From positions 1 to 37,639 of the IMG/VR virus record IMGVR_UViG_3300029923_000054: a DNA stretch of 37,639 bases. One strand, written 5' to 3'. Numbering within the stretch: the stretch's first letter is position 1; each line of letters opens with the position of its first letter. Of this stretch, positions 52 to 37,068 are shown one piece after another. Source of the DNA: a virus. Position numbers and translations under genes: made by a program. A model generated the notes under the pieces. It ran no database searches. It was not told the origin of the DNA and saw nothing but the letters and a program-made list of their open reading frames with translations.

Positions 52-201
52 TTACCCGCTCACGAAATCGACGAACGCTTGGTGAGCGATCCGCGCTGCC
101 CCGCGCGCGCAGCGGAACACCACGTAGGCCACGAAGCCCACGCCGACGAGCGCAGGCACCACGGTTTCGATCGCGAACCGTTCGACCACATGCTTTTTCA
201 T
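52..201 (-). CDS. Small single-pass membrane protein, 49 aa
   Basis: Short ORF with one hydrophobic segment (about residues 11-30, TVVPALVGVGFVAYVVF) between a basic N-terminus (MKKHVVER) and a basic C-terminal half. The start at 201 is preferred because AAGGTGA lies about 7 nt upstream and because the ATG overlaps the previous stop as ATGA. A longer upstream reading to 276 would run through the preceding small gene in another frame. It is the last gene of the lysis cluster seen here. A second holin or a holin antagonist is possible by position and topology, but no family is recognised. Confidence 0.6.
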   Translation of the reverse strand: MKKHVVERFAIETVVPALVGVGFVAYVVFRCARGAARIAHQAFVDFVSG

Positions 202-377
202 CTTGGATTCACCTTGGGCAACGCGGCCCCCTTCGCGGCAAGCCGGAGCATCATTTGCCGATAAGCAGGCGGGCACTCGCGCCAGTCGCGCACGAGTAAC
301 GCCGCCTGCTGTTGCTCGGTAAGCAGCTCGATACGCGGCCGCGTTGGCGGCTCCGGCTCGAAGTCGCTTCGTTTCAC
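198..377 (-). CDS. Small hypothetical protein, 59 aa, GTG start
   Basis: This short gene begins at a GTG that overlaps the upstream stop as GTGA (374-377). It ends at a TGA that overlaps the next start as ATGA (198-201). The linkage at both ends is the main evidence that it is real. The product is soluble and charged: a Pro-rich start (FEPEPPTRPR) is followed by a probable helix (ELLTEQQQAALLVRDWRE) and a CPPAYRQMM segment. No signal peptide, membrane segment or known domain is visible. It sits between the coiled-coil membrane protein and the 49-aa membrane protein, so a minor lysis-cluster role is possible. Function unknown. Confidence 0.6.
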   Translation of the reverse strand: MKRSDFEPEPPTRPRIELLTEQQQAALLVRDWRECPPAYRQMMLRLAAKGAALPKVNPR

Positions 378-685
378 GCGCCCGGTACGGGATCGAGCGC
401 AGTCTCTACTTCGGCGTCGAGCGCCGCGAGGTCTGCATCGGTGGTTCCCGCGGCAGCTTGCGCGGCCGAGAGTTGAGCGGTCAGCGTAGCAATCTGGGAA
501 TCCTTGTCGGACTCAGCGGCTTTCAGCTGCGCGTTTTCGGTAACCAGCTCGAGCTTTTCTTTCTTGAGCTCGCGCACGTGTTGAGTGAGTTGTTCGAAGG
601 TGGGCGTTGACATGTTGGAAACCTTTCTAGCGAGGTAAACGGTTGCGGCCGCGAGCGCCGCGATAGCGATGGTGTCGGCGAGCAT
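374..685 (-). CDS. Membrane-anchored coiled-coil protein, candidate inner-membrane spanin
   Basis: With the start at 685 the product has 103 residues: a hydrophobic segment at 3-19, a basic stop-transfer (ARKVSN), then a charged coiled coil at about 35-75 (ELKKEKLELVTENAQLKAAE). This is the layout of Rz-like i-spanins, which sit in the inner membrane and span the periplasm to an outer-membrane lipoprotein. It directly follows a gene for a Pro-rich lipoprotein, as Rz1 pairs with Rz. There are other in-frame starts at 721 and at 613. The 613 ATG (MSTPTF) has the better ribosome site (AGAAAGG, 8 nt spacing) and would give a soluble 79-residue coiled coil without the membrane segment. Two products are therefore possible. 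Spanin identity is inferred from layout, not similarity. Confidence 0.65.
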   Translation of the reverse strand: MLADTIAIAALAAATVYLARKVSNMSTPTFEQLTQHVRELKKEKLELVTENAQLKAAESDKDSQIATLTAQLSAAQAAAGTTDADLAALDAEVETALDPVPGA

Positions 686-693
686 TGCTGCGC

Positions 694-1032
694 TCACATA
701 CAGGCGCGCGCGATCGAGCACGACTCAGCCGCCGCAACGCAAAACGGCACGAGCGAAGTCCCATCGGGACCGGTTTCGTTGTTGACGCACACCTGCGTGC
801 ACGTAGCGCCCGCCGCAGTCGGCTGCGCCTCTGGACAGCCAAGCGCGAGCAGCTTCGCGCACGCCTTGCCGCACGGCGAATCGTCGGGCGGGCTTGGTAC
901 GGGCGCCGCGTCGCTCGGGTTGTCCCATGGCGACGGCGGTTCGGGCTGAGGCGGCGGCTTCGGGAATGGGCCGAGCTGGCAGCCAAAGACGGCGACCACG
1001 AGCAGAGTCATCAGAATGAATATTTTTCGCAT
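694..1032 (-). CDS. Proline-rich, cysteine-rich small lipoprotein, candidate outer-membrane spanin
   Basis: The 112-residue product starts with a type II signal peptide (MRKIFILMTLLVVAVFGC, lipobox VFGC, Cys18). A Pro-rich stretch (about 22-48) follows, then a compact domain with eight cysteines (about 54-112). The start at 1032 has GAGG 6 nt upstream, and the longer reading to 1131 lacks a sensible signal. A Pro-rich lipoprotein beside a coiled-coil membrane protein is typical of o-spanin/i-spanin pairs. The Cys-rich tail is not usual for Rz1 and resembles Cys-rich modules of deltaproteobacterial and myxobacterial lipoproteins. It may instead be a lysogenic-conversion or surface protein. Confidence 0.7.
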   Translation of the reverse strand: MRKIFILMTLLVVAVFGCQLGPFPKPPPQPEPPSPWDNPSDAAPVPSPPDDSPCGKACAKLLALGCPEAQPTAAGATCTQVCVNNETGPDGTSLVPFCVAAAESCSIARACM

Positions 1033-1040
1033 TGGATGCC

Positions 1041-1763
1041 TCAGAGGTGGATGGCCCAAAGATCGGTGAATGTGGCCATGAAGCGCGGCGACACGCGGAG
1101 GAACCCGCCGTCCGCATAGCTCGTGCCCCACGAATTGCAGAGCGTGAACGATTGCGCGTCGTAGCCAACAACGGTGAGAGCGTGACCGCCCACGCTCGGC
1201 TCGTTGGCGCTCGGATCGTAGATGTCTCCGGCGAGCACGCCGAAGATCGAGTTGCCGACCGACGCGCCACCGACGACGGGCTTGCCAGCCGCGATCGCTT
1301 GCTTGATTTCGGTCAAACCGGTGACGCGCAGATAAGCGCTCGGGCCCTTATGATCGTAGCCCTCTTTGTACGCTTCCCATGACGGGCGCGCGACCAGCGG
1401 ATCATGCTTGAACGGGCAAGCCGATTCGGGTGGACGCCCGAACTTGCCGAGCCCCTTCGCGCAGCTGCGGAGCTGAGTTCCCTGGTCCACGAACCCGCCG
1501 CCGTCGTAGGCGAGCGAATTGAAGTACAGGAAGTCACGCGCCGAGAGCTGCGGAGCCGCAACGCCGGCAATCCTGTCGGCGATGCGTAGCCCCTGCGCGA
1601 AGCTGTGCGCCACGCACTTGGACGTGTCGCCCTGATCGAGCACCTCGACGACGTACTGCCGTAGCGACGCCGAGGCGGGAACGGCCGACGAGAGGCCGAG
1701 TTTGGCCAGCCCATGATCGCGCGAGTCGGGCGCGTCGGGGATGTAGCCGAGACGCGGCATCAT
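1041..1763 (-). CDS. Papain-like (C1 family) cysteine peptidase in the endolysin position
   Basis: The 240-residue protein carries the C1 signature in order: oxyanion Gln44 and nucleophile Cys50 in LDQGDTSKCVAHSFA, His194 in GGHALTVVGYD, and Asn210 in LCNSWGTSYADGGF. Its length fits a mature papain-fold domain with no propeptide and no signal peptide, so it would be made active in the cytoplasm. The ATG overlaps the stop of the upstream membrane protein (ATGA), and a spanin-like lipoprotein follows 8 nt after its stop. That is the usual endolysin slot, and no lysozyme, amidase or transglycosylase is seen in the window. It could cut peptide cross-links or envelope proteins. It could equally act on host or virion proteins. 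Fold and active site are clear; substrate is not. Confidence 0.85.
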   Translation of the reverse strand: MMPRLGYIPDAPDSRDHGLAKLGLSSAVPASASLRQYVVEVLDQGDTSKCVAHSFAQGLRIADRIAGVAAPQLSARDFLYFNSLAYDGGGFVDQGTQLRSCAKGLGKFGRPPESACPFKHDPLVARPSWEAYKEGYDHKGPSAYLRVTGLTEIKQAIAAGKPVVGGASVGNSIFGVLAGDIYDPSANEPSVGGHALTVVGYDAQSFTLCNSWGTSYADGGFLRVSPRFMATFTDLWAIHL

Positions 1764-2311
1764 TGCTCGCTGTGCCCCAAGCGCACGGCGCCAGCGCGCC
1801 CCATGGCTCTGTTGGCAGAGTCGAGGAACGGCGCGACTTGCTCAGCGGTCGAGCAAAACGCCTTTTCCACATCCTCCGGACTGATGCCCTTAGCTTGCGG
1901 TTGCTGCGCGAAGAACACGTCGCACAAGATGATCGCGGCCTGGTCGACCGACTTAACGAAGGGTTTCAGGCTCGCGCACGCGCCCAAGGTGAGGGCAAAA
2001 ACGAACGCCAGCGCAAAGCCGAGACCTGCCGAGTTCGGACCATTCGGCGGCTTGATCGCGACGGTATGCGAGTGGATGCCGGGGGCTACTAGAGCGGCCG
2101 CGACCAAGAACGCGACAGTCAGGTCAGTCCACGATTGCGCGCCCGTGAGACCCTGCGCGAGCGCCGGCAATGCCACGATGAGGCCCGGCAACGGACCGGC
2201 AACGACCGGAGGCAAGAAGCCCCATAGCGGCTTGCTGGCACCGAGAATGCGGGTCGCGGCGAGCGCGAACGCGATGGTAAAAGTGACGACTTGAACGACT
2301 TGAAGATGCAT
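1760..2311 (-). CDS. Multi-pass membrane protein with lipoprotein-like C-terminus, holin candidate
   Basis: The 183-residue product has hydrophobic segments at about 5-23, 32-54, 62-79 and 95-111, followed by a soluble tail. The last hydrophobic segment ends in LGAC (Cys112), and CASLKPFVKSVDQAAIILC after it resembles small phage lipoproteins that start with a signal peptide and CASLK. The gene therefore looks like a holin-type membrane protein fused to a lipoprotein-like module. I found no in-frame start that would make the second part separately. The start has CGAGGGA upstream. It is the first gene after a strong terminator and is coupled by ATGA to the peptidase. Holin function is inferred from position and topology. 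Confidence 0.6.
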   Translation of the reverse strand: MHLQVVQVVTFTIAFALAATRILGASKPLWGFLPPVVAGPLPGLIVALPALAQGLTGAQSWTDLTVAFLVAAALVAPGIHSHTVAIKPPNGPNSAGLGFALAFVFALTLGACASLKPFVKSVDQAAIILCDVFFAQQPQAKGISPEDVEKAFCSTAEQVAPFLDSANRAMGRAGAVRLGHSEQ

Positions 2312-2428: not shown

Positions 2429-4279
2429 TCAGTGCTGAGTTGGGGCGTGCAGCGCGAGAACGAAAGCAGCGTCGGTGCCAGTCGCCCCGAGCTTCGTCTT
2501 CACCCGCCAGCCGCCAGCGATCGGAAACACGCGCGCCCGATCGATCTCAACGTCTTCGACGATTGAAAGCTCGATCGGCCGCAACGTTTCGCCCACGTAC
2601 TTGGAAATCGTCAAAGACGTGTCGCCGTTGCCGTTGTCAGTGATCGTGAAGTCCGCCGGCACCAGCGACGTGTTCAGCGCGACCACTGCGGTCACGCTAG
2701 GCACGCTGGCCGCGAATTCCACTTGAATTCGCGCGCTAGGCGCAACCGTGGCATCGGCAACGATCTGACGAACGAACTGATTGAAGATGTCCGCGTGCGG
2801 GACCGTCCGCGGGTCGCGCGGAAGAGTTACGTTCTCTTGGGAACCGCCGCCGAGCTCGTCGATTCCAGGCCGATGCCACGTGCTCTGATCGTACGTGAGG
2901 ACGCTGCTTAGACCATTGCTCGGCGGAATAATCACCGTGACCGCCAGCAGGCTCAGCACTGCCGCCTGATAGACCGGCAACAAAAGCGCGTTTCCGGCTG
3001 CGGTGGGGTGCGCGTGATCTGACTGGTAATTGGTCGCGTTGTTCGAGTCTCCGAACGCCCCCATCCCAGCGACGCCAGCAACGTCAATGATCACATCGGC
3101 GTGAAGTCGCCCGTTCGTCAGAACATCAGCATTGTAAGCGACGCGCTTTGCTTCGAAGCCTGCGATTAGCCCAGCATCCGAACGCGGCAAAACCGTACAC
3201 AGCGCGACCAGGTTGCCGAGCGCGCGCGACGCATCACAGAGCGCGTATTCATCGACTAGGCACTGCGCCGCCGTTGCTGAGGTAGCCAGGGAGTTTGTTG
3301 CGACCTGTATGACGTGGACGTTCTTGTTTCGAGAAGTCGAGTATCGCGGCGCAATGCTAGCCGTGAACTTGGCCGTCTGCCCCGCGATCGTATCGCTGGG
3401 AACGGACATATTCAGGATCTTGATTTGTGGGCCAAGCGCTTGCAGCGCTGGCAGCATCGCAAACGCTGGGCACTGGTAGCGCCGAGTCCCGTAGCCTGCG
3501 CCGATCGAGTCGCCCGACCAAGCGACAAGATTCACGTTTGCCGGGAATGCTGTGGCTGTCGCCTGCGTCACCAGCCACGCAAGCAGCAAGTCGCGATCAG
3601 TGTTGTTTAGCGCGCTGCTTACGCCGACGATTTGAGAGATGCTCGCGTGTGCCCCCTCGTCGGTCTGCGGGAATAGCCCCGCAGTAATGCTCGCGATCGT
3701 GCCAGCCGGGATGGTGGCCGCCGTCGAGTCACTGCTCGCAACGCCGCCGATATTTGCGCTGACATCGAGCCCCGTAGGGGTGACGCGCATCGCAACGTCG
3801 ACGCGGGTCTCGAGCGGGATCGTGATTGCGCTTTGCCAGAGCAGTCCAACGCCGTAATAAAAACAAAGCTGGCCGTTCACAATGCACGGGCCAAACGGGC
3901 GGCCGGTAACGTTGTCGACGCCGGCTAGGAGCCCGCGAACCATGCCCGGCTGCACCTGCGGCGACGTTCGGTCGATGAACGTCAGGCCAATCGTGCAAGC
4001 GTTCGCCGGCAAAGTCGAACCGGCAGGCGCGTCGAGCGCATGCCCGCCATAGTTGCCGGTTGTTGGCACCGGCTCGAAGCAAAACGAAGCAGCGTCTCGA
4101 AACGGTCTGGCGTCAGTCGTGTTTTTAGCGAGCCAGTAGCCGGACAGCGGCGCGGGCTGATTTACCCGCGCGACACGACCCAAAGGCGCGGACGCGGAAA
4201 CCGTACCGGCTGCATCAGAGTATGCCTGTTGCGTTCCGTCGAGTCTCAATGACGGCGTAATCGATCCTGGAAAAGACAT
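2429..4279 (-). CDS. Tail fibre/spike with SGNH (GDSL-type) hydrolase domain
   Basis: The 616-residue protein has three parts. Residues 1-225 are beta-rich and lectin-like (jelly-roll style). Residues 250-445 are an SGNH hydrolase: GDSIGAG (Ser258), a Gly at about 300, ATNS (Asn329) and DHAH (Asp421, His424), which are the four conserved blocks in order. Residues 457-616 are a domain duplicated as the stand-alone gene at 7702-8202. SGNH enzymes remove acyl or acetyl groups from glycans, so this is probably a receptor-binding spike that deacetylates host surface polysaccharide. It is the last structural gene before the terminator and starts 1 nt after the preceding fibre gene. No signal peptide, as expected for a virion protein. 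Confidence 0.8.
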   Translation of the reverse strand: MSFPGSITPSLRLDGTQQAYSDAAGTVSASAPLGRVARVNQPAPLSGYWLAKNTTDARPFRDAASFCFEPVPTTGNYGGHALDAPAGSTLPANACTIGLTFIDRTSPQVQPGMVRGLLAGVDNVTGRPFGPCIVNGQLCFYYGVGLLWQSAITIPLETRVDVAMRVTPTGLDVSANIGGVASSDSTAATIPAGTIASITAGLFPQTDEGAHASISQIVGVSSALNNTDRDLLLAWLVTQATATAFPANVNLVAWSGDSIGAGYGTRRYQCPAFAMLPALQALGPQIKILNMSVPSDTIAGQTAKFTASIAPRYSTSRNKNVHVIQVATNSLATSATAAQCLVDEYALCDASRALGNLVALCTVLPRSDAGLIAGFEAKRVAYNADVLTNGRLHADVIIDVAGVAGMGAFGDSNNATNYQSDHAHPTAAGNALLLPVYQAAVLSLLAVTVIIPPSNGLSSVLTYDQSTWHRPGIDELGGGSQENVTLPRDPRTVPHADIFNQFVRQIVADATVAPSARIQVEFAASVPSVTAVVALNTSLVPADFTITDNGNGDTSLTISKYVGETLRPIELSIVEDVEIDRARVFPIAGGWRVKTKLGATGTDAAFVLALHAPTQH

Positions 4280-6742: not shown

Positions 6743-7702
6743 TTATAAGCTCACGTATGCGGTTGTGCCGATTGGCACGATGCCAACGCTCGGCTGTCCG
6801 ACTAAGATCGGGCCACAGATTCCGGGTGTAGTTTCGTGCACAACGTCCCACGTTGACGTCCCGCCGAGCATTCGCGAGAGCAGATCATTCACTCTCGCTC
6901 GCAAGGTCGGGTCGGTTGCCCTTCCGTTCTTCACGATTACGAGAGAGTTCTTCTTGAAGCTCGACCAGTTCGGAAACGAGCCTGTGAAGGCGAGCGCTCC
7001 CGCTTCATGCCCATTCGTAAACTGCGCTACCATCATGCCGATTTTCGCGCCTCCGGAAGTGCCCGCGGTCGGAGTGCCGAGCACCGTGATCGCCTCTTGA
7101 ATTCCGTTCAGCCCAGGATCGACGACTAGTGTCTCTTGGTCCTGAAGATCAGTGGAGTCGCCGTCGATGGGCAGATATCGCATGTAGATCGGGGCTGCTA
7201 CGCTCAAGACCGGATCTAGAAACTTGACCGTCTTGAAGCGCGCCGTCGGAGCTTTGCAAAGCGCAATCGGTATTGTATCCGGAGACGGATTGCATACCGG
7301 ATTCGGGGCCCAAGCCACGAAGTCAGAGCCGAGCAGTAAGCGCAATGCTTGCGTAACGTTCTGCTGCGACGGCTCAAGCGCAACCGCGTAGCGCGCCGAG
7401 AGCATGTCGCGCCGTGTGTTTGCGCTGTCGCTAGCGCCGGGTGCGAGGCCATACATGCCCTCCAGCACCGGCAATAGCTCATGCACCGTTTGCGGGTCCG
7501 CTTGGTTCTCGGAGCGCTCGAGAGTGTCGCGTGCCGCGCCGGCAGCCATCGCGATCGCGTACCACTCCGCGCAGATGGGCCCGCTGAAAGTGTCATCGAA
7601 GTTGCCGCCGTTTATCGAAACGAGCGACTGGTAGATCGACTGCGCTCGGGGCGTAGCGCTTGAAAACTCGAGCATTCCCCAGCCGGTAAACGCGGAAAGC
7701 AT
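6743..7702 (-). CDS. Baseplate protein, Mu gp48-like (DUF2313 style)
   Basis: The 319-residue product follows the gp47-type baseplate gene and a small gene and precedes the tail fibres, as gp48 does in Mu. Residues 65-110 (TVHELLPVLEGMYGLAP followed by a run beginning TRRDMLSARYAVAL) match the usual start of that family: a leucine-rich helix ending in GL, then an RR-containing helix. Mu gp48 is about 200 residues. Here the second half (about 165-319) is longer and beta-rich and may hold a fibre-docking domain. The start overlaps the upstream stop by one base (TGATG). Family assignment rests on this pattern and gene order. Confidence 0.6.
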   Translation of the reverse strand: MLSAFTGWGMLEFSSATPRAQSIYQSLVSINGGNFDDTFSGPICAEWYAIAMAAGAARDTLERSENQADPQTVHELLPVLEGMYGLAPGASDSANTRRDMLSARYAVALEPSQQNVTQALRLLLGSDFVAWAPNPVCNPSPDTIPIALCKAPTARFKTVKFLDPVLSVAAPIYMRYLPIDGDSTDLQDQETLVVDPGLNGIQEAITVLGTPTAGTSGGAKIGMMVAQFTNGHEAGALAFTGSFPNWSSFKKNSLVIVKNGRATDPTLRARVNDLLSRMLGGTSTWDVVHETTPGICGPILVGQPSVGIVPIGTTAYVSL

Positions 7703-8202
7703 CAGTTCACCTGAAAGACGAAAGGCGCATCGACACCCGTCGCGCCAAGTTTCGTTTTGATGCGCCAGCCGTTTACGAGTGGGAACACGCGCGCTCTATC
7801 GATCTCCACGTCGCCGACGATCGTTAGTCCGCTCGGTCGAGTGAGTTGCACCGGTATTAGCGTGAGTGGAATCGTGATCGACGTATCTCCGTTGCCATTG
7901 TCCGTCACGTTCCCGCCTAGAGCGGTGAAAGTCGAAGCGGATAGGGCAGTGCCCATCGCGACCAGTTGCGTGATAGACGGCACTCCGGCGACGAATTCGA
8001 CCTGAATCTTCAGGCTCGGAGCGATTCCGGCAAGCGCGACCACTTGCTTCATCGCCTGATTGAACATGCCGGCGCTTGGGTGCGCGGTCGGGTCTGGCGG
8101 GCGTACCGCGTCGTCCTGAAACGCGCCTCCGCCAAACTCCGCGATCGTTGGCCGATGCGGCAAGGCCTGATCGTAGGTGAGAACGCTGCTGAGTATTGTC
8201 AT
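7702..8202 (-). CDS. Stand-alone copy of the SGNH fibre's C-terminal domain
   Basis: This 166-residue protein aligns almost end to end with residues 457-616 of the SGNH fibre encoded at 2429-4279. Shared blocks include LSSVLTYDQ, IQVEF, TDNGNGDTS, DVEIDRARVFP and KTKLGATG. The two DNA stretches are also visibly similar, so this looks like a duplication rather than convergence. It overlaps the stop of the J-like baseplate gene by ATGA, so it is coupled to it. A structural role is likely, for instance a baseplate adaptor for the fibre. A chaperone or assembly domain is an alternative. Exact function unknown. Confidence 0.75.
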   Translation of the reverse strand: MTILSSVLTYDQALPHRPTIAEFGGGAFQDDAVRPPDPTAHPSAGMFNQAMKQVVALAGIAPSLKIQVEFVAGVPSITQLVAMGTALSASTFTALGGNVTDNGNGDTSITIPLTLIPVQLTRPSGLTIVGDVEIDRARVFPLVNGWRIKTKLGATGVDAPFVFQVN

Positions 8203-17080: not shown

Positions 17081-19276
17081 TTATTCGCACGCGGTGACAG
17101 CGGTTGACGCGGAAGCGGTCGGGGCGATTGTGCTGGCCGCGCTTGCCAGAGCGGTGATTGAGCTGTGCGCGCAGCCGACCGACGACGACGGAGGCGGAGG
17201 GGCGACGCCGAAGAATGCGGCGAAGCTTCGAACCCGACGCCAGAGCGAATCAAGAAACGTCTGCTCGGCTGGCGATGAGTCCTCAGCGATCGGCCTAGCG
17301 CGCGCCGTCGGCGGAGGATCGACCCGCCAGAAGAACGCCGACCACGGCTTGCGTTGCAGTGTCTCGGGGAAATGCTCGTCCGAGATCGGTCGCGCTCGAG
17401 TCGTCGGCGGAGGGACCGGCGGAGGGGGCGACGTGGGGAACCACGGGCGCCGCTGCGTCGGTTGCTCTGCTGGAGACTCCTCGGTTTGCGGTCGAATTCG
17501 GATTGGCAGCTGAGCCGCGACGGCAACCGGGAGCGGAACCAGTCCGCTTCGCCGCTGTAGTGGCTCGTCCGCCTGATCGTCGGAGATTGGCCGAGCACGC
17601 GTTACCGAGGGAGCGTCGACCCGGGCAAAGTCCGGAGCCCACGGCTTGCGCTGGAGTGGTTCCGGAGATTGCTCGTCCGAGATGGGGCGAGCGCGAAGAA
17701 CCGGCGGAGCGCTCGGCACGAGCCCGCTGGTCGGCAGCCATGGGCGGCGTACTAGCGTTTCGGGTGATTGCTCGTCGCTGATTGCTCGATCCCGCGTTAT
17801 CGGCGGGTTCGACGGGACTACCCCGCTCGTCGGGATGCTAATGCGGCGCTGCAGATCGTCCTGCGTCGCATTTTCTTCGAGCGGTCGAGCGCGAGTGACA
17901 GGTGGCGCGTCGGTGGCGCGGAGGGGCGCCGGGCCTTCGCGTTCCTGAATCGTGTCGGGCGCCGTAGGCTCGTCCGCGATCGCGCGCCGTGCGGCGAACG
18001 GAAAGGCGACGGGCGCCGCCGCCTGTGTTGCAGGCGGCAACGGCCGCAGCCGGATCGGCTCGTCGGCAATCGGCTCGTCGGCGAGACGCGGCTCGCGCTC
18101 GGCTGGTGGCCCCGCTTGCGGCGCAAGGGTTACCAGTGGCGAACGGAGCTGGATCCGTTCGTCGGCTGGCGAGTCGTCCACGAGCGGCTTTCGCGCTCGG
18201 AACGGTGTCGCGGTAACCGGCGGAGCTCCCGTTGGGAACGCTCGGCGAGTGATGCGCTCGTCGAGCGGAGCCGCGTCGAGGTCTGTCGTGTCGTACGCTA
18301 CGAGCGGAGGCGAATCGGGTGGCGGAAACGCCGCCTCTGCGCCGCTACGCAGTGGCAAATCGGGTGCCAGTGCCTCGTCGATCACGGCCCGCGCGCGTAG
18401 CTTCGGCGGAGCACTCGGCACAAGCCCGCTCACTGGCCGCCATGGCCGCCGAATCAGTGTCTCGGGCGATTGCTCGTCGAGAACCTGTCGCGCGCGTAGC
18501 TTCGGCGGAGCGCTCGGCGCGATTCCGCTTACCGGGATCCACGGCTTGCGTTGCGGAGCGTCGACGAACTGCTCGTCGAGCATTGCGCGTCGACGCGCGG
18601 GGGGATTGGCGGCGCCGCCCCCTGCGCCTGTCTGCGCGAAGATCGCGATCGATATGTGCGGCGCGGTCGTACCCGTGAACGTCGCGTCGATCGGCGACGT
18701 CGTAGTGACCTGGATGTGCTCGAAGCGAGCGCTCGTGCCGCCTTGGTCGATGTCCCAGCCTGCGCCGTCGTCGGTAAACCCTGCGCCCGCGGTGGCCGCG
18801 TTGGTTGCGGGGTTCGTGTCCATCGACACGCCGAATAGCCATCCGGTGCCCGCGGGGGTGAGCTGCGTCGAGCTGAGTGCTGTGGCGCCGCTCTGGAGCT
18901 GGCTAGCGAACTGGAGCGCGCTAACTGGGTCCGGGCACTCCCAGACAGCCATCCCACGAAAGCCTGCCGCAACCGACCATGTCACCGCCGGCAAAATGCT
19001 GACAGCCGTCACGCCGGTGAGAATCGCGAAGACCTCGACCTGCTGCTGGTTGCCTGTGTCCTGCCGGGTGTGCCGAACGGCGCCATAGCTGCCATTCGTT
19101 GGATCCGTGGCGCTCGCGGTGCCGCCGCTCGTCGTGTCGTTGGTGCAGGCGATAACGATAGCGGCGCCGGCTGCAGGCGTGAACGCGACGAGCGTTCCGT
19201 GCGTCGCTTGAGACGGCAAGGTCGTGATCGACGACGCGCCCGCGCTGACCTGACCACGGAAAATCGGGGTCGTCAC
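17081..19276 (-). CDS. Large protein with jelly-roll-like head and 14 proline-rich repeats
   Basis: The 731-residue protein has three parts. Residues 1-225 look like a beta-sandwich (strands such as GTLVAFTPAAGAAIVIAC and APHISIAIFAQTGAGGG). Residues 227-692 are about 14 tandem units of 32-34 residues. The best units read ARPISDEQSPETLQRKPW, then a stretch such as PTSGLVPSAPP. The last 38 residues are Pro then Ser/Thr/Ala rich with two Cys. There is no signal peptide or membrane segment. It overlaps the stop of the upstream gene by 4 nt and abuts the next. Its place between chaperones and tape measure suggests a virion protein, possibly an adhesive filament. I do not recognise a family. Confidence 0.75.
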   Translation of the reverse strand: MTTPIFRGQVSAGASSITTLPSQATHGTLVAFTPAAGAAIVIACTNDTTSGGTASATDPTNGSYGAVRHTRQDTGNQQQVEVFAILTGVTAVSILPAVTWSVAAGFRGMAVWECPDPVSALQFASQLQSGATALSSTQLTPAGTGWLFGVSMDTNPATNAATAGAGFTDDGAGWDIDQGGTSARFEHIQVTTTSPIDATFTGTTAPHISIAIFAQTGAGGGAANPPARRRAMLDEQFVDAPQRKPWIPVSGIAPSAPPKLRARQVLDEQSPETLIRRPWRPVSGLVPSAPPKLRARAVIDEALAPDLPLRSGAEAAFPPPDSPPLVAYDTTDLDAAPLDERITRRAFPTGAPPVTATPFRARKPLVDDSPADERIQLRSPLVTLAPQAGPPAEREPRLADEPIADEPIRLRPLPPATQAAAPVAFPFAARRAIADEPTAPDTIQEREGPAPLRATDAPPVTRARPLEENATQDDLQRRISIPTSGVVPSNPPITRDRAISDEQSPETLVRRPWLPTSGLVPSAPPVLRARPISDEQSPEPLQRKPWAPDFARVDAPSVTRARPISDDQADEPLQRRSGLVPLPVAVAAQLPIRIRPQTEESPAEQPTQRRPWFPTSPPPPVPPPTTRARPISDEHFPETLQRKPWSAFFWRVDPPPTARARPIAEDSSPAEQTFLDSLWRRVRSFAAFFGVAPPPPSSSVGCAHSSITALASAASTIAPTASASTAVTACE
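17201..18598 (-). repeat. Tandem array of about 14 diverged ~100-nt coding repeats
   Basis: The repeat region inside the 731-residue gene has a period of about 96-102 bases, read in frame. In the leftward sense each unit encodes a basic (R/T)AR start, a (P/A)(I/V)xDE centre, a (Q/R)RxPW stretch and a Pro-rich end. Units at the two ends of the array and in the middle (RARPISDEQSPETL type) are closest to each other; others have drifted. This is a gene-internal expansion, not a CRISPR: the units are all coding and have no constant spacer structure. Confidence 0.8.
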
Positions 19277-23084: not shown

Positions 23085-24602
23085 TCACATTTGGCGAAGA
23101 CTCACGCCGATCTGGTGATTGCGTGGCGACGGCACGATCGGAATCAACGACATGGGTCGCTTAGCAACCGGGTCCCAGCCGGAGCTCGGCAGGTTCAGAT
23201 CGACGTCGATGATCTGCGGTATGCCGCTTGTCACAATGTCGCCGCGCTCGAACCGCTTGAGCCTCTGGATTACTCGGTCGTTCCAGCGCTTCGGCGTTCC
23301 GACGCCGCTGATTCGCTCGCCCTGCTCTGGCGCCGGGTCGTCGGCGAGCACCGGGTTTTGGTTCTTCCACTCGGGCCACAGGCTCGAGCCGATGTCGACT
23401 CGAATGAAGTCCGTCACGGACGCCCATCCGGTGTCCAGCACGCGATAATCCGGCGCGGTGCCATTGAGGCAGCGCGTCGTGATTGACCGAGTGATGAGCG
23501 CCTGACCGTTCGACGTGTATATCGGGGTGAGACCGGTCTGCAGCGCGGCCAGCTTCGTCGATCGTTGCGGAATTTGCGACGTGTACCGGTGCGGGGCGAG
23601 GCCGACCAAAACCTCGTCGTCGTACTCCGAGCCCGGATCGCCTGGCTCGGTCGCGGTGCGCAGCGCGGCCACGAAGGCAGCGATCTCGGCCGGGTGCGAC
23701 TCGCCCTCGAGCATCCAGACCAATTGAAAACGACCGTTGTTCAGGGTCGTTTGCGAAAGGCTCTGAGCGTTGCCGAGCGTGTCATTGCTACCAACGACCG
23801 TGTATTCCGGACGCCCCTCGAGCGGCCCAGCCTTGGCGTTTTCGTTCGCGAGCCAAACCGCGAGATTCGCGGAATCGTTCGGCGCGAATGCCACGCGCTG
23901 ATACCAAGCGGGGAACGTTGCGGTCGACACCGCGGTCACATCGTCGACAGTTGTTCCGCCTCCGAAGCGCTTGCCGCCGCTGGTGACCGACGTGCCAGAG
24001 CCGCCAAGCGTGGAACCCATGACTGTCGGGCCCTGCGTCACGTCCTGCACCACGACGCCGAAGTTGCCGCGTGGACCCTTCTGCTTGCGCGTGAGCGTGA
24101 CGACTCCGGCAGCGTTGCCAGCGGTGACTGGCAGAAAATCCTTCTGTCCAATCAGCGCCAGCAGCGTATTTCCGGCAGCCGTTGGCGCGTCACCGAGCGC
24201 AACCGGGACGTCGATGCGTTCGCCGTCGATCCAGTACGTGAACGTCCCGGCGCTCCCAGCGGTCCCGGTAAACGAGATCGTGACTGTACCAGCGGCGCCC
24301 GCGCTCTCGGTGACCGGCGAGCACCAGATCTGAATGCCGGGTACACGGAGCGCAGCGCGCACCATGCGATGCAGCTCGGAGCCAGGACCAAAGAACGTAC
24401 GCGCGTCGTTCTCCGAAAAGACCTGCTTCGTGTCGACGTTGGGAACGGCGCTCCCCGTGGCCAGCATGTTGCCGACCAAAAGCAGCTTGAAGACTGCGTT
24501 GCCCGACGTAGCCGGGCCGGCGCCCAAGACGGTCTCGCCCACGAAACCGGGGACGAAATCGGTGGACGCGAAGCCGATGATCGAGACTGGCGGTGCGGTC
24601 AT
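23085..24602 (-). CDS. Tail sheath protein, Mu gpL-like
   Basis: With the start at 24602 (MTAPPVSIIGFASTDFVPG) the protein has 505 residues, close to Mu gpL. It shows the sheath pattern: an N-terminal strand for subunit linking, a variable beta-rich insertion (about 105-215) and a conserved C-terminal part with VLVGLAPHRYTSQIP, LITRSITTRC and DFIRVDIGSSLWPEW. The upstream reading to 24782 would add an Arg-rich lead and overlap the gp38-like gene far too much; the chosen ATG overlaps its stop by ATGA. It forms the contractile outer tube. Confidence 0.88.
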   Translation of the reverse strand: MTAPPVSIIGFASTDFVPGFVGETVLGAGPATSGNAVFKLLLVGNMLATGSAVPNVDTKQVFSENDARTFFGPGSELHRMVRAALRVPGIQIWCSPVTESAGAAGTVTISFTGTAGSAGTFTYWIDGERIDVPVALGDAPTAAGNTLLALIGQKDFLPVTAGNAAGVVTLTRKQKGPRGNFGVVVQDVTQGPTVMGSTLGGSGTSVTSGGKRFGGGTTVDDVTAVSTATFPAWYQRVAFAPNDSANLAVWLANENAKAGPLEGRPEYTVVGSNDTLGNAQSLSQTTLNNGRFQLVWMLEGESHPAEIAAFVAALRTATEPGDPGSEYDDEVLVGLAPHRYTSQIPQRSTKLAALQTGLTPIYTSNGQALITRSITTRCLNGTAPDYRVLDTGWASVTDFIRVDIGSSLWPEWKNQNPVLADDPAPEQGERISGVGTPKRWNDRVIQRLKRFERGDIVTSGIPQIIDVDLNLPSSGWDPVAKRPMSLIPIVPSPRNHQIGVSLRQM

Positions 24603-25231
24603 TTGTCGGCTCCGTTGGCGACGCGGCTTGCGCGTGCGGCTTTGGCGTCGGGGGTGGCGGCGGCGGTTTCTGCGTCTGACGGGGCAGGGCGGGCCTCTGC
24701 CAGCGTCGTCAGCACGGGCGCCGCGCTGGTCAGGGCGGGCGCTTCGGCTGACTTTGCGGGGGCGCCAGCGAGCTCGGGGCACAGCTCGGCGAACGTGCCC
24801 TCACCGAAGTGAGACTCGAACACCGCAACGCCGGCCGCCTTGGCCTCCGCGAGGCTCGCGAATCGGCAACCGTTCTCGCCAGAGCGCTCGTCGGCGGGGA
24901 TCAGATCGCCATCGCGCAAGCGGTCGAGGTAGTACGGCGTTTTCGGTAGCTCGATGCCGCGTTCGAAACCCGGAGCCGGGCCGAGCAGCGCAGCGTCGAG
25001 CGAGGGGAACGCCCACGCTTGTACGTGCACATTGAGCCGCGTCTCGTTCGGATCTGACTCGTAGTTGTGCACGAGCTTCGTGCGCTCTTGGTCCTGCTCG
25101 GCGCCGATGAAGCGCGGAGTCGAGCCGCGGCCGCCCGTATCTTCGTGACAATGGCCTTGCGGGCCGAGGTCGTGGTGGATGAACCCCCACGGATTCGGGA
25201 AAACCCGGACGGTCGATTTCGGTAGGGGCAT
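24599..25231 (-). CDS. Mu gp38-like (DUF2635) protein with extended N- and C-terminal parts
   Basis: The 210-residue protein sits directly upstream of the sheath gene, as Mu gp38 does. Residues 95-112 (LPKTPYYLDRLRDGDLI) match the short conserved end of DUF2635 proteins (YWxRRLxDGDV). Those are usually about 70 residues. Here there is an extra N-terminal part (1-90, with HHDLGPQGHCHED and LVHNYESDPNET) and a long Ala/Pro-rich C-terminal tail (about 155-210). The extension makes it unusual for the family. The start has no strong ribosome site visible; a hairpin lies in the leader. Function of the family is not known. Confidence 0.55.
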   Translation of the reverse strand: MPLPKSTVRVFPNPWGFIHHDLGPQGHCHEDTGGRGSTPRFIGAEQDQERTKLVHNYESDPNETRLNVHVQAWAFPSLDAALLGPAPGFERGIELPKTPYYLDRLRDGDLIPADERSGENGCRFASLAEAKAAGVAVFESHFGEGTFAELCPELAGAPAKSAEAPALTSAAPVLTTLAEARPAPSDAETAAATPDAKAARASRVANGADK

Positions 25232-27022: not shown

Positions 27023-27042
27023 CGCTTTACCTTGTCAGTTAG

Positions 27043-27117
27043 TTGCGGAGAGCTGGATTTGAACCAGCGGCCTCTTGGTTATGAGCCAAGCGCGCTACCA
27101 GACTGCGCCATCCCGCA
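27043..27117 (-). tRNA. tRNA with CAT anticodon (Met-type or CAT-Ile2)
   Basis: Read leftward, the 75-nt stretch folds with a D-stem GCGC/GCGC, anticodon stem CTTGG/CCAAG with loop CTCATAA (anticodon CAT) and T-stem GCTGG/CCAGC with loop TTCAAAT. The acceptor arm TGCGGGA pairs with the 3' end with one extra base and a G-U, so it is slightly irregular. The CCA end is not encoded. The anticodon stem lacks the three G-C pairs of an initiator. It lies inside the head gene cluster, between the 228-residue gene and the gp36-like gene, so it is a phage tRNA. Whether it reads AUG or AUA depends on modification. Confidence 0.85.
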
Positions 27118-27927: not shown

Positions 27928-29031
27928 TCAGCCGATCGGCGTGGTGACGAGGTATCCGGCGAACGCCGAGATCACCTTTTGCTGGTCGCTGAGCGTGCAG
28001 CGCGCCAAGTACGAGCCCTTCGGTCCGCGGTCGTTGATCCACATCAGATCGGTTTGCGTTGCCGCGTCCTGGAACGTGGTGCCGAAGCACACATTCCGGA
28101 GGCTCGGCGAGGTCGACACGCGGAAGAATCCGAGGATGTCGGGCCACATGCGGCCGTAGCTGGCTGCCGCGTTGCTGTTCGCGACATCCTTGCGTGCGCG
28201 ACCGACCAAGAACTCGTCGACCTCGAAGTACTCGGCGAGCATCTTCGTGTTGGCCATCTTCGGGCCTTCGGCGCCGACGCCGTACTTGAAGGTGTCGAGG
28301 ATGCGCGGGTGGCGCTTCAGCACGTTGTAGACGCTGAGCGATGCAACGGCGACCGTCTTGCTCGGGCCCATACCCTGCCAGAGGTTCGCCATCGCCGTGT
28401 CAGCGACGCCAGCGGGATCGCCGCCAGCCGAAGTATCGAAGCGGTCAGAGCCAGCCAGCGCCACAGTGTTCGCGCCGAAGTTTCCGGGGGTCGTGGTCGC
28501 CGCGATGATGCGTAGCTCTTGGTTGAACGCCAAGCCGTCGAGCACATGCGATTGTACGTCGATCAGCTCGTTCAGCGGAGCACTCTGGTTCTGGATCGTC
28601 ATCCAGTCGAGGTACTCGCGCAGTGAGCGGATCCCGAGGCTGAAATTGCGCTTGGTGCGGCCCTGCCCGAGCTCGTTCGCGTTGACGCGATCGGCTACGG
28701 TGTCATCCGGGTACGCCAGGCGATCGCGCTGATTGTATTCGTAATAGATGCCGCTCAGAGCGCCACCCGTGAGCACGCGCGGCATCAGTTGCAAGCCGAT
28801 GTAGTCGTCGTTGACGTACTGCACTGACATCGACGTGAGGACGGTGTCCTGGTGCACGTCGCCGGGACGGAGGTCCTTGACTGCCAGGATGTCTGAGTTG
28901 CGTTCTGCGAACTCCGCCATCTCGGCGTCGTCGCCGCGCGACTCGATGCCCTTGACGTACTTGACGAGTTTTTCGTACTCGAGACCTGCGGCGGTGCGTT
29001 GCACCGGCATCGCGTTGTCGGTTCGGATCAT
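27928..29031 (-). CDS. Major capsid protein
   Basis: The 367-residue product lies directly after the decoration protein gene and the protease. Residues 45-110 (DLRPGDVHQDTVLTSMSVQ then DYIGLQLMPRVLTGG and YYEYNQRDRL) and the end (FGTTFQDAATQTDLMWINDRG, ISAFAGYLVTTPIG) have the strand and loop pattern of HK97-fold capsid proteins. The start MIRTDNAMPVQR has GGAG 10 nt upstream; a second Met at residue 8 is possible. The protease could remove an N-terminal part, but no cut site is evident. Family subtype not certain. Confidence 0.8.
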   Translation of the reverse strand: MIRTDNAMPVQRTAAGLEYEKLVKYVKGIESRGDDAEMAEFAERNSDILAVKDLRPGDVHQDTVLTSMSVQYVNDDYIGLQLMPRVLTGGALSGIYYEYNQRDRLAYPDDTVADRVNANELGQGRTKRNFSLGIRSLREYLDWMTIQNQSAPLNELIDVQSHVLDGLAFNQELRIIAATTTPGNFGANTVALAGSDRFDTSAGGDPAGVADTAMANLWQGMGPSKTVAVASLSVYNVLKRHPRILDTFKYGVGAEGPKMANTKMLAEYFEVDEFLVGRARKDVANSNAAASYGRMWPDILGFFRVSTSPSLRNVCFGTTFQDAATQTDLMWINDRGPKGSYLARCTLSDQQKVISAFAGYLVTTPIG

Positions 29032-30758: not shown

Positions 30759-32207
30759 TCAGGGTGACGATTGCGCAGCTCGTCGAGCGCCGCTCTTGGG
30801 TTTGCCTTTCGGCTTTCCCTTGGGATTTGCTGGTTCGGGCTCGGCGTCGTCGCCTTCGGTTCCGGTGTCTTTGTCGCCATCGGGGTCGGGCTCCACGCCG
30901 GGGTTCTTGTCGCCCATGCCTTCGCCAAGCAGCTCGTCACCTTCGTCGCCCTCGGGGATGCCAGTCTTCTCGTAAACGTACGAGGACGGGATCTTCAGGC
31001 CGGCGTTGCGGAACGCTTGGATCGACTGAGCGAACTTGAGGAAGTCGAGCGGGTCCTCGGTCAGAAACAGGAACTGGCCAGGCTCGATCGATGGGCCGTA
31101 ATTGAGCGCATAAAACGGCTCGATCACGTACTTCTGAACGGCCGTTGATAGGCCCACCGCATCAGCGTCGCGTCGGTCTTTGCGCAGCTCGTTACGGGCA
31201 GCCGTTGCAGCGCGCGAACCATTGGCGCCCGGCGACACCATGTCAGTTTGACCGAGAACGGCCTTCGACATTTCGTCGCCGAGGAAGTCGGCCAGTTCTT
31301 TGTGATTCGAGACCTTGGCGCCGGCTTGCTGCGGCCAGAACAGCTCGATCGAAGTGTTGTCGGGGTGCGTCGCCACGCCGTTCGTGGTGAGCGCCTGCAT
31401 GATCTTCCGGAGGTTGTCCTTGTCCGGCTTGCTCGCCTCTTTGGCGTACTTGCCGAGGCGCCAAGGCTTCCACGCGAGCTCCGCAAGCTGCAGCCAATCG
31501 CGCAGATCGAACGTCCGAAAAAGCGAAAGCCAGATGATGAGTCTGGACAGGCCCTCACGGACCAGTGTGTCGCCGTTCACGCGCGGCTGATACGTTGAGA
31601 ACTTTCCGATCGGGTACTCCTCGATCAGATCGACACCGAGCGCATCAACCGCGTTGCCGTTGCCGCTCGTCGTCGGATCGAAAAGCAGCTTTCCGTCGAC
31701 TTGCCGGAAGCCGAAGCGCCGACAGTTGATCTGCTTGAACACCGACGGCACCAGGAGGCCGTCCTTGTCTTTCTTCCAGACGTTCTCAGAGTACGCGTAA
31801 CCGAATGCGTTGCCCTCGCCGACGAGGTGAGCGCACATCTCGCGGAACGTGTCGCACGCGAGCAGCGCTTTCATGCACCGATCGCGATACTTGCTGTCCC
31901 GTTTCTTCTTTCCCTCGGGGGCGATGATGTCGAACGGCAACCCAGACACCGCGAGCTCGCGCGTCTGAAATATCGACTGGACGTGACCTTCCTTCTGTCG
32001 GCACTCGTGGAAGAGATCGACAAGTCGGAAGGGGCGGCCAGCGTCCGCCGATTGCAGAATCGACGAGACCTGACCCGGGGTGAGGTTGCCGCCAACGCGC
32101 TGGAACTGCAGCGAGAGAGCGAGATCGGCAACGACCGGATCGACGTAAGACTTCTTCTTGGACGCCGTCCGCTCCTGCGCGCCGGCACCCACGCGCTTGG
32201 TGGCCAT
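30759..32207 (-). CDS. Portal protein, Mu gp29-like (DUF935)
   Basis: The 482-residue product has the DUF935 blocks: ECRQKEGHVQSIFQTRELAV (the two-helix start), CAHLVGEGNAFGYAYSENVW, a turn with INCRRFGF, then LSLFRTFDLRDWLQLAELAW, KPWRLGKYAKEAS and the C-terminal QTDMVSPGANGSRAATAARN. Portals form the ring where DNA enters and leaves the head. It is preceded by the small structural genes and followed by the protease. The last 70 residues are acidic and Pro/Lys-rich, probably disordered. The start at 32207 has GAGGGA upstream. Confidence 0.85.
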   Translation of the reverse strand: MATKRVGAGAQERTASKKKSYVDPVVADLALSLQFQRVGGNLTPGQVSSILQSADAGRPFRLVDLFHECRQKEGHVQSIFQTRELAVSGLPFDIIAPEGKKKRDSKYRDRCMKALLACDTFREMCAHLVGEGNAFGYAYSENVWKKDKDGLLVPSVFKQINCRRFGFRQVDGKLLFDPTTSGNGNAVDALGVDLIEEYPIGKFSTYQPRVNGDTLVREGLSRLIIWLSLFRTFDLRDWLQLAELAWKPWRLGKYAKEASKPDKDNLRKIMQALTTNGVATHPDNTSIELFWPQQAGAKVSNHKELADFLGDEMSKAVLGQTDMVSPGANGSRAATAARNELRKDRRDADAVGLSTAVQKYVIEPFYALNYGPSIEPGQFLFLTEDPLDFLKFAQSIQAFRNAGLKIPSSYVYEKTGIPEGDEGDELLGEGMGDKNPGVEPDPDGDKDTGTEGDDAEPEPANPKGKPKGKPKSGARRAAQSSP

Positions 32208-33164: not shown

Positions 33165-34829
33165 TCAGCCGTATCCGCGGCCGTCGTAGTTGCCCCAGCG
33201 AGGTGCATCGTCGACGAACTCGTCGTCGTCCTCGCCGGAGTCGATCGGCGTTGCTACGCCGTCGAAAATCGCTAGTAGGAAAGAGTCCGCGAAATCGGGG
33301 CTCTGATTGCTCGGTGCGCGCTTCTTGATCTCGTCCTTCGACTCGACCTTGCGTTGCGCTTTTTTGGTGAGCGAGTAGGTGGGCGCGATTAGCTCGGACT
33401 CGAGCCGCGGATCGCTGAAGAACGCGCCGCCCTCTTGCGCCCACTCTCGAAACGAAAACCAGATCTCGTCACGCAGTAGCGGGAACTCTTCCGGCTCGGT
33501 CGAGACGCAAGCGACGTTGATTTCGATTATCTGCACGAACTCATCGAGATCGCCGTTTTCCTGCAGCTCACGAAGCCGGTCAGCGACAGCGCCGCCATAG
33601 CCGCCAGCGGCGTCGAGCTTGATTCGAACGCGCTCGCCTTTGGTGCGCAGCTTGCGCATGACCAGCAGTACCAGCCCGCAGACCTTCGTCGAATCGTAGC
33701 CGCTCGCCCAGGATTCGATCCCATGCTGCGCCTTGATCCAAGCAGGCGAGTAACCGACGAGGCCACGGCGCCCAGTAACGACCGAGAGATCGTCTCCGAA
33801 TCGAGCGACGTCTACGCCCAGATCGAGCGTGCCACTCGGCAGCAAGTCGCCAGATTCTACCGTGTCCCAGCGCGCCGTTGCCGCCTCGAGCATGCCGAGG
33901 CCAATCACGGCATTCGCGACCTGAGTCGGAAAGTCGCCACGCACACGAACAGCGACGAACGGCGAGTCGTCGCCGTAGGCCCTGACCATTTCGTCCACTG
34001 CCTCGCGCGTTGCGAGCCCAGGGACGAGGCGCTGACCGCTGCAGTAGTTCGGCGAGTCGTAGCAGGTCAGATGGATCTGAAACCAGAACTCGCGCCGAGT
34101 CGTGAACGTCTCGTAAAAGAAGCCGGACGTTTGCGTCGGGTTCGATAGGGCAAGCACCTTCGCGCCGCCAGTCGCGTTGCCGATGAATGCCTCGGCGATC
34201 TTTGCTTCGATGCCGCTCGCTTCGTCGAGGATGAAGAATAGCGCCGGCCCCGAGATACCAGCGGCGTTCTCCGGCGTCTTAGTGGCGAAGCCGCGCATGC
34301 TGCGCCCGTCGTCCCAGCGGCACCCGGTTGCGGGGTCCAGTGGCACATTCGGTAGCAGCTCGACGCCGCGACGCTTGAGCGCCCGGTTGACCTCGTGAAG
34401 CTCTTTCCAGAGGACGTTTTTGACCTGCGGATCGGAGCTCGAAGTTAGGATGCACTCGCCGCGGTCGCGCGTGCAGACCCACCAGATCGCCAGGAGAATC
34501 GCGAGCAGTGACTTTCCCGTCTTCTGCCCGCTGCGAATCGTCACGCGCTCATTGGCGCAAACGGCTCGAGCGGCTTTCGCCTGGTAGTCGCAAATCGTGC
34601 CATCGGGCAGCGGAATCTCGAGCTCGTAGCCGAGAATGTCCCGGATGAACTCGACTGGTCGGTCCGCGTATTCGTAAAGCGGGTTTGTGTACCGCCTGAT
34701 CTTCGGCCCGGTGTCAGCCTTCGCCGCCCTCTCCTGGATCCTCGCCTTCGCCAGCTTCGCGAGCAGCAAGGCGGGCGAGGATTGCCTCGTAGCAGCCGCA
34801 ATCCTTCGCGCCACAAACCCGCTCGACAT
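33165..34829 (-). CDS. terL: Terminase large subunit
   Basis: The 554-residue ATPase/nuclease that packs DNA has Walker A SGQKTGKS (100-107), Walker B FFILDEASG (Asp202, Glu203) and an ALSNPTQ coupling motif. A C-terminal RNase H-like nuclease has acidic residues in LDLGVDVARFGDD, IKLDAAGGYGG and SPDFADSFL. Residues 46-90 match the usual start (YADRPVEFIRDILG). The start at 34829 gives a 116-nt overlap with the small subunit gene in another frame. No later ATG or GTG with a ribosome site fits, so the overlap may be real. Confidence 0.9.
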   Translation of the reverse strand: MSSGFVARRIAAATRQSSPALLLAKLAKARIQERAAKADTGPKIRRYTNPLYEYADRPVEFIRDILGYELEIPLPDGTICDYQAKAARAVCANERVTIRSGQKTGKSLLAILLAIWWVCTRDRGECILTSSSDPQVKNVLWKELHEVNRALKRRGVELLPNVPLDPATGCRWDDGRSMRGFATKTPENAAGISGPALFFILDEASGIEAKIAEAFIGNATGGAKVLALSNPTQTSGFFYETFTTRREFWFQIHLTCYDSPNYCSGQRLVPGLATREAVDEMVRAYGDDSPFVAVRVRGDFPTQVANAVIGLGMLEAATARWDTVESGDLLPSGTLDLGVDVARFGDDLSVVTGRRGLVGYSPAWIKAQHGIESWASGYDSTKVCGLVLLVMRKLRTKGERVRIKLDAAGGYGGAVADRLRELQENGDLDEFVQIIEINVACVSTEPEEFPLLRDEIWFSFREWAQEGGAFFSDPRLESELIAPTYSLTKKAQRKVESKDEIKKRAPSNQSPDFADSFLLAIFDGVATPIDSGEDDDEFVDDAPRWGNYDGRGYG

Positions 34830-35608: not shown

Positions 35609-35812
35609 TCAACGCGCAAGTGATTGGAAAACATCGGGAAATGCTGACATGAGCCGGCCCCTGGTCGTGTAGTACCGCCCGCCTTTTTTCAGCGCCGCGC
35701 CTTCACGCTTCAGCCAGTTAATGGCCTCATCCGTGGTCTTGAGCTTGAGTAAGAGGCGCACGTCGTTCGTTGTGAAATATTGTTTTTCTAAATCGACAGT
35801 CGTTCTTTTCAC
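35609..35812 (-). CDS. Small winged-helix DNA-binding protein, excisionase-like
   Basis: The 67-residue product (GTG start) has the pattern of small MerR/excisionase-type winged helices: YFTTNDVRLLLKLKTTDEAI (HTH), NWLKREGAALKKGGRYYTTR (the wing, with GRYYTTRGRL) and a short last helix. Its start overlaps the stop of the zinc-finger gene by GTGA, so the two are coupled. It may regulate the late genes that begin just downstream. It could also direct recombination, but no integrase is in the window. Confidence 0.65.
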   Translation of the reverse strand: MKRTTVDLEKQYFTTNDVRLLLKLKTTDEAINWLKREGAALKKGGRYYTTRGRLMSAFPDVFQSLAR

Positions 35813-36987: not shown

Positions 36988-37033
36988 TGTGTGGCACTCC
37001 TGGTGAGGTACGGCATCGACCTCGGAGCGCGAG

Positions 37034-37068
37034 ACCCCGGCAAGACTCCACATCTTGTCGGGGTTTTT
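37034..37068 (+). terminator. Plus-oriented intrinsic terminator
   Basis: The 12-pair stem 37034-37045 / 37053-37064 (one G-T) with a seven-base loop is followed by TTTT (37065-37068) on the plus strand. That is a complete intrinsic terminator for rightward transcripts, yet no rightward gene ends here. In the leftward message, the same stretch lies in the 87-nt leader of the zinc-finger gene and would form a hairpin with one mismatch and no T-run. Confidence 0.75.

What the first reader, a model, noticed from the sequence alone, without database searches (positions are those of the whole stretch)
1041..1763. Papain-like peptidase occupies the endolysin slot
A complete C1 active site (Gln44, Cys50, His194, Asn210) is encoded between a holin-like and a spanin-like gene, and no known muralytic enzyme is present in the window. 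C1 enzymes are not usual phage endolysins. It may be an unusual lysis enzyme that cuts peptide cross-links or envelope proteins.
Basis: partly seen in the sequence, partly recalled or inferred. Interest (0 to 1): 0.75.

Follow-up and report, generated by a model that had tools for sequence, protein, structure and literature searches.

The report
Phage papain-like protease beside membrane genes
This virus fragment really does carry an intact papain-type protein-cutting enzyme wedged among small membrane-protein genes, but such enzymes are already known in phages, often accompany rather than replace the normal wall-cutting enzyme, and nothing yet shows that this one bursts the host cell.

Summary
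The minus-strand ORF 1041-1763 encodes a 240-aa papain-fold (C1A, xylellain-type) peptidase with Gln44, Cys50, His194 and Asn210 intact. It overlaps by 4 nt (ATGA) an upstream four-TM gene and is followed by a lipoprotein gene and a TM/coiled-coil gene. 'Holin' and 'spanin' rest on topology only; neither neighbour has a recognised homologue. No muralytic family is found in the window, but the record is a fragment: the Mu-like structural module without replication genes, cut 51 bp after the last cassette gene. Absence of an endolysin therefore proves little.

Relatives: about 350 viral contigs and many bacteria carry this peptidase type. Phage copies lie beside small membrane-protein genes about twice as often as size-matched genes (24/65 versus 12-14), while bacterial copies do not (13/62 versus 12-13). 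That supports a lysis/envelope-zone role in a subset. In THSA-485A and one IMG/VR contig, however, the peptidase sits directly next to a canonical endolysin; 19 of 50 C1-bearing records tested encode a recognised muralytic domain; and the closest relative lies outside any lysis cassette and lacks the catalytic Asn.

Best reading: an accessory, holin-released envelope protease. Sole endolysin is possible but unlikely. New member of a known kind.

The parts
1041..1763 (-). C1A papain-fold (xylellain-type) cysteine peptidase, 240 aa; Gln44, Cys50, His194, Asn210; no signal peptide, no long propeptide
   Evidence: Pfam PF00112, PHROG 16701 'peptidase', 3ois, alignment with 39 viral relatives, AlphaFold pLDDT 89.8 and Foldseek TM 0.87 to 3ois
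1760..2311 (-). 183-aa protein with four hydrophobic segments, the last ending in a lipobox-like LGAC; holin-like by topology only; its stop overlaps the peptidase start by 4 nt
   Evidence: no homologue
694..1032 (-). 112-aa lipoprotein (signal with lipobox VFGC, Pro-rich stretch, 9 Cys); o-spanin-like by topology only
   Evidence: no significant homologue
374..685 (-). 103-aa N-terminal TM plus likely coiled coil; i-spanin-like by topology only
   Evidence: only a weak PHROG 3671 (unknown function) match; no match
198..377 (-). 59-aa cassette ORF of unknown function
52..201 (-). 49-aa single-TM ORF, last gene before the record is cut
2429..4279 (-). GDSL/SGNH-type esterase, tail-fibre-like; upstream boundary of the cassette
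   Evidence: Pfam PF13472 33.2 bits

Best explanation
The gene makes a xylellain-type C1A cysteine peptidase that a Mu-like tailed phage expresses in one operon with small membrane proteins. Shown: the fold, the conserved active site, the lack of a signal peptide or long propeptide, the 4-nt overlap with the upstream four-TM gene, and the membrane-gene neighbours. Inferred: it is made late, builds up in the cytosol, is let into the periplasm when the holin-like protein opens the inner membrane, and there cuts host envelope or surface proteins, helping release alongside a conventional endolysin encoded outside this fragment. Papain-type enzymes typically cut L-L peptide bonds (own knowledge), so a protein substrate is more likely than the D-amino-acid cross-links of Gram-negative peptidoglycan.
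For: Family, fold and active site. Operon packing and TM/lipoprotein neighbours. Virus-specific enrichment beside small membrane-protein genes: 24 of 65 non-redundant viral loci versus 12.2-13.9 expected, and 8 versus 1.0-1.7 with two or more such genes (0 of 2000 permutations reach either); bacterial homologues 13 of 62 versus 11.7-12.8. Next to canonical lysis genes: GH25 endolysin in THSA-485A, M15 endolysin in L052, Rz-like spanin two genes from the C1 gene in L018. C1 fused to Rv2525c-like GH and peptidoglycan-binding domains in MMB025. Accompanying rather than replacing: 19 of 50 C1-bearing records other than the window carry another muralytic domain, at a similar rate whether or not membrane genes are near (7 of 18 versus 12 of 30).
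Against: Most viral neighbourhoods are not lysis cassettes (tail fibres, homing nucleases, capsid, portal, unknown). The closest relative (L184, 37%) lies outside any recognisable cassette and has Ser in place of the catalytic Asn. The window protein is a long-branch, divergent member, differing at 19 of 57 positions at least 90% conserved in other viral copies, so function may not carry over. The membrane neighbours have no recognised lysis homologues.
Confidence: 0.5

Rival explanations
1. It is the phage's endolysin: the only lytic enzyme, released by the holin-like protein and cutting peptide bonds of the wall or wall-anchored proteins so that the cell bursts.
For: Position between a multi-TM gene and lipoprotein/TM genes; no muralytic family in the window. 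In contig L021 (54.6 kb) the C1 gene also sits with lipoprotein and TM genes and none of ten muralytic Pfam families was found. C1 fused to wall-binding domains in MMB025.
Against: The record is a fragment cut 51 bp after the cassette. In Mu the lysis genes lie upstream of the packaging genes (own knowledge), and here only about 2.5 kb of that side is held. 19 of 50 C1-bearing records tested have canonical muralytic domains, two of them directly adjacent to C1. No peptidoglycan-binding domain here.
Confidence: 0.15
2. It is a host-takeover or counter-defence protease that works in the cytosol and merely sits in the late region as an accessory (moron) gene.
For: No signal peptide; scattered contexts in jumbo and other phages, including beside metabolic and replication genes; mixed virus/host tree.
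Against: Does not explain the virus-specific enrichment beside small membrane-protein genes or the overlap with a four-TM gene.
Confidence: 0.25
3. It is a virion-associated protease near the tail-fibre/esterase genes that clears surface proteins at entry.
For: The cassette directly follows a GDSL-esterase tail gene; several relatives lie next to tail-fibre or structural genes.
Against: No fusion to or shared domain with tail proteins here; it overlaps a multi-TM gene instead. In jumbo phage XacN1 the C1 peptidase is not among the lytic enzymes reported as packed in virions (PMC5852040).
Confidence: 0.1

Closest known systems
Xylellain (Xylella fastidiosa C1A cysteine protease, PDB 3ois)
   Same: Same papain fold (TM 0.87), same N-terminal GYIPD..D.RD motif, same active site
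   Different: About 28% identity; a bacterial protein of unknown substrate (PMC12090721); not known from a phage operon
Peptidase C1A of Thermoanaerobacterium phage THSA-485A
   Same: Shares the unusual DQGxxSxCVAH active-site stretch; lies in the lysis region
   Different: 25% identity; sits directly after a GH25 endolysin gene, so it is clearly not the only lytic enzyme
Alicyclobacillus phage MMB025 CDS0095 (annotated endolysin)
   Same: N-terminal C1 peptidase with the same catalytic residues
   Different: 753 aa, fused to Rv2525c-like glycoside-hydrolase and peptidoglycan-binding domains; called an endolysin in silico only (PMC13141910)
XacN1 jumbo-phage C1 family peptidase (ORF382)
   Same: Phage C1 peptidase listed among potential lytic enzymes (PMC5852040)
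   Different: One of many candidate lytic enzymes in that 384-kb genome; function untested; sequence not compared here

Membership tests
Peptidase family C1A (papain family) | Catalytic Cys/His/Asn and oxyanion Gln in order Q-C-H-N | tested here: met
   Q44, C50, H194, N210 invariant with 39 viral relatives
Peptidase family C1A (papain family) | Papain fold and significant family-profile score | tested here: met
   PF00112 31.5 bits, cut-off 20.7; model pLDDT 89.8, Foldseek to papain and cathepsins
Peptidase family C1A (papain family) | Proteolytic activity | not testable with these tools
   Needs purified protein
Xylellain-type short bacterial/phage C1A peptidases | Short, propeptide-poor single-domain protein with N-terminal GY.P..D.RD motif, nearest solved relative xylellain | tested here: met
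   divergent long branch
Phage endolysin | Known muralytic catalytic family or wall-binding domain | tested here: not met
   Only Peptidase_C1 and PHROG 'peptidase' are found in the protein
Phage endolysin | Encoded in a holin/spanin lysis cassette | tested here: inconclusive
   Membrane and lipoprotein neighbours by topology only
Phage endolysin | Degrades peptidoglycan and is needed for lysis | not testable with these tools
   Needs zymography and gene removal
Phage endolysin | No other lytic enzyme in the complete genome | not testable with these tools
   Record is a fragment without end repeats or recognisable replication genes

The most novel reading that the evidence does not exclude
A C1A papain-type protease has taken over the endolysin role: holin-released proteolysis of envelope proteins (or wall peptides), with no muralytic enzyme, is what breaks the cell in this phage lineage.
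Probability: 0.1. Interest if true: 0.75.

Novelty: new member of a known kind. Interest (0 to 1): 0.35.

Why it matters
Xylellain-type C1A peptidases in tailed phages have been noted (PMC10380794), but I found no report that tested their role. The virus-specific enrichment beside small membrane-protein genes found here gives a quantitative hint that part of them act in lysis or on the envelope, and this window offers a compact, testable operon. If a protease could replace the endolysin it would be a new way of phage lysis; if it is an accessory, it would add a protein-cutting step to lysis, distinct from spanins.

Tried and rejected
Single-protein searches with the C1 protein, the holin-like protein and the baseplate protein gave no relatives in viral contigs, nor did the C1 protein in genome contigs. 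Kin of the phage were found only over the head/tail half, so the lysis slot of close kin could not be compared. An alignment of five distant relatives was too diverse to search with. I suspected a distinct lysis-linked 'CVAH' subgroup shared with THSA-485A; a scan with the two-sequence alignment brought in only L184 and another THSA-485A record, L185, and a DNA pattern for the DQGxxxxCVAH stretch brought in no further C1 gene, so no such subgroup could be established. L186 was a marginal match and was dropped. I tested whether C1 phages with membrane neighbours lack canonical lysins more often than the rest: they do not. The tree does not place the window protein reliably because of its long branch.

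Full report
What is there. The window is an IMG/VR virus record, linear, without end repeats. All convincing genes lie on the minus strand: small terminase, terminase (33165-34829), a Mu-type portal (30759-32207), prohead protease, major capsid protein (27928-29031), sheath (23085-24782), baseplate genes, a GDSL esterase (2429-4279), and then the cassette of interest at the left end. No replication genes are recognisable, and the cassette is cut 51 bp after its last ORF. The record is therefore most likely the structural module of a Mu-like myophage, not a whole genome. Contigs 99.9% identical over 17.9-37.0 kb and others about 72% identical over the head module exist, but none reaches the cassette.

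The peptidase. ORF 1041-1763, minus strand, 240 aa, matches Pfam Peptidase_C1 above its cut-off, PHROG 16701 'peptidase' and xylellain 3ois at E 6e-22. An AlphaFold model (pLDDT 89.8) finds 3ois first at TM 0.87, then cathepsins and papain. Gln44, Cys50, His194 and Asn210 are invariant in an alignment with 39 viral relatives. There is no hydrophobic signal segment and no long propeptide, so the enzyme should be cytosolic until released. Compared with 37 other viral copies it has changed 19 of 57 positions that are at least 90% conserved, and it sits on a branch of 4.9 changes per column against a median of 0.42.

The neighbours. The upstream ORF 1760-2311 has four hydrophobic segments and its TGA overlaps the peptidase ATG (ATGA). 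Downstream come a 112-aa lipobox protein (694-1032), a 103-aa TM/coiled-coil protein (374-685) and two small ORFs, all tightly packed. The codon-position GC of these ORFs resembles that of the phage's other genes. The three main neighbours have no lysis-family match in Pfam, PHROGs or NCBIfam, and no significant match by tblastn in 50,697 phage records. 'Holin' and 'spanin' are therefore topological labels, not identifications.

Relatives. Alignment-based scans found 353 viral stretches and at least 526 in bacterial and archaeal genomes that encode relatives. Annotated phage relatives at E below 1e-5 are few: FLC9, a 595-kb uncultured phage, THSA-485A and MMB025. That such short bacterial C1A peptidases were acquired by tailed phages is already published (PMC10380794), a C1 peptidase is listed among potential lytic enzymes of jumbo phage XacN1 (PMC5852040), and the MMB025 fusion protein has been proposed as an endolysin (PMC13141910).

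Is it a lysis gene elsewhere? I compared the neighbours of C1 genes with those of size-matched genes in the same loci. In viruses 24 of 65 non-redundant C1 genes have a small membrane-protein gene on the same strand within two genes, against 12.2-13.9 expected; 8 have two or more against 1.0-1.7; none of 2000 permutations reached either. In bacteria it is 13 of 62 against 11.7-12.8. The measure relies on a simple gene caller and hydropathy, and signal peptides count as membrane segments, but these errors affect observed and expected alike. The loci came from a pattern-seeded search, so they are a sample, not a census. Direct lysis neighbours are rare: GH25 in THSA-485A, M15 in L052, an Rz-like spanin in L018. 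Most other neighbours are tail fibres, nucleases or unknowns.

Does it replace the endolysin? I searched 50 C1-bearing records besides the window with eight muralytic Pfam families, and a subset of lysis-like contexts with two more. Eighteen of the 50 have a hit above a cut-off, and THSA-485A adds an annotated GH25 enzyme (19 of 50). MMB025, with its fused domains and an M23 hit, is not in that count. Presence is no rarer where C1 has membrane neighbours (7 of 18 versus 12 of 30). Many records are fragments, so these counts are lower bounds. Contig L021 (54.6 kb) is the best parallel to the window: C1 with lipoprotein and TM genes and none of the ten families found. The closest relative of the window protein, L184, is not in a recognisable cassette and has Ser at the catalytic Asn position.

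Conclusion. The enzyme is real and probably active. A lysis- or envelope-related role is plausible and has some statistical support at family level, but as an accessory rather than as the endolysin. The absence of an endolysin from this fragment is not evidence that the phage lacks one.

Noticed in passing
window 7702-8202 and 2429-4279 (minus): The 166-aa protein shows 58% identity to the GDSL protein over the aligned part, which looks like its C-terminal end; a duplicated tail-fibre domain is likely.
   Followed up: no
window 17081-19276 (minus): 731-aa protein with many imperfect Pro/Arg-rich repeats of the type RARPISDEQSPETLxRRPW; no family match.
   Followed up: no
window 27042-27117 (minus): tRNA-Met (CAT) gene inside the structural operon, between two structural genes.
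   Followed up: no
window 35809-37053 (minus): 414-aa protein upstream of the terminase with DnaJ-like CxxCxGxG zinc-finger repeats.
   Followed up: no
L184:9947-10726: Closest relative of the C1 protein (37%) has Ser where the catalytic Asn should be.
   Followed up: partly
L003:7917-10178: MMB025 'endolysin' is a C1 peptidase fused to Rv2525c-like glycoside-hydrolase and PG_binding_1 domains.
   Followed up: partly
L021 (IMGVR_UViG_3300047199_000011, 54.6 kb): C1 gene followed by a collagen-like lipoprotein, a C-terminal-TM protein and a two-TM protein; none of ten muralytic families found in the contig. Best parallel to the window.
   Followed up: partly
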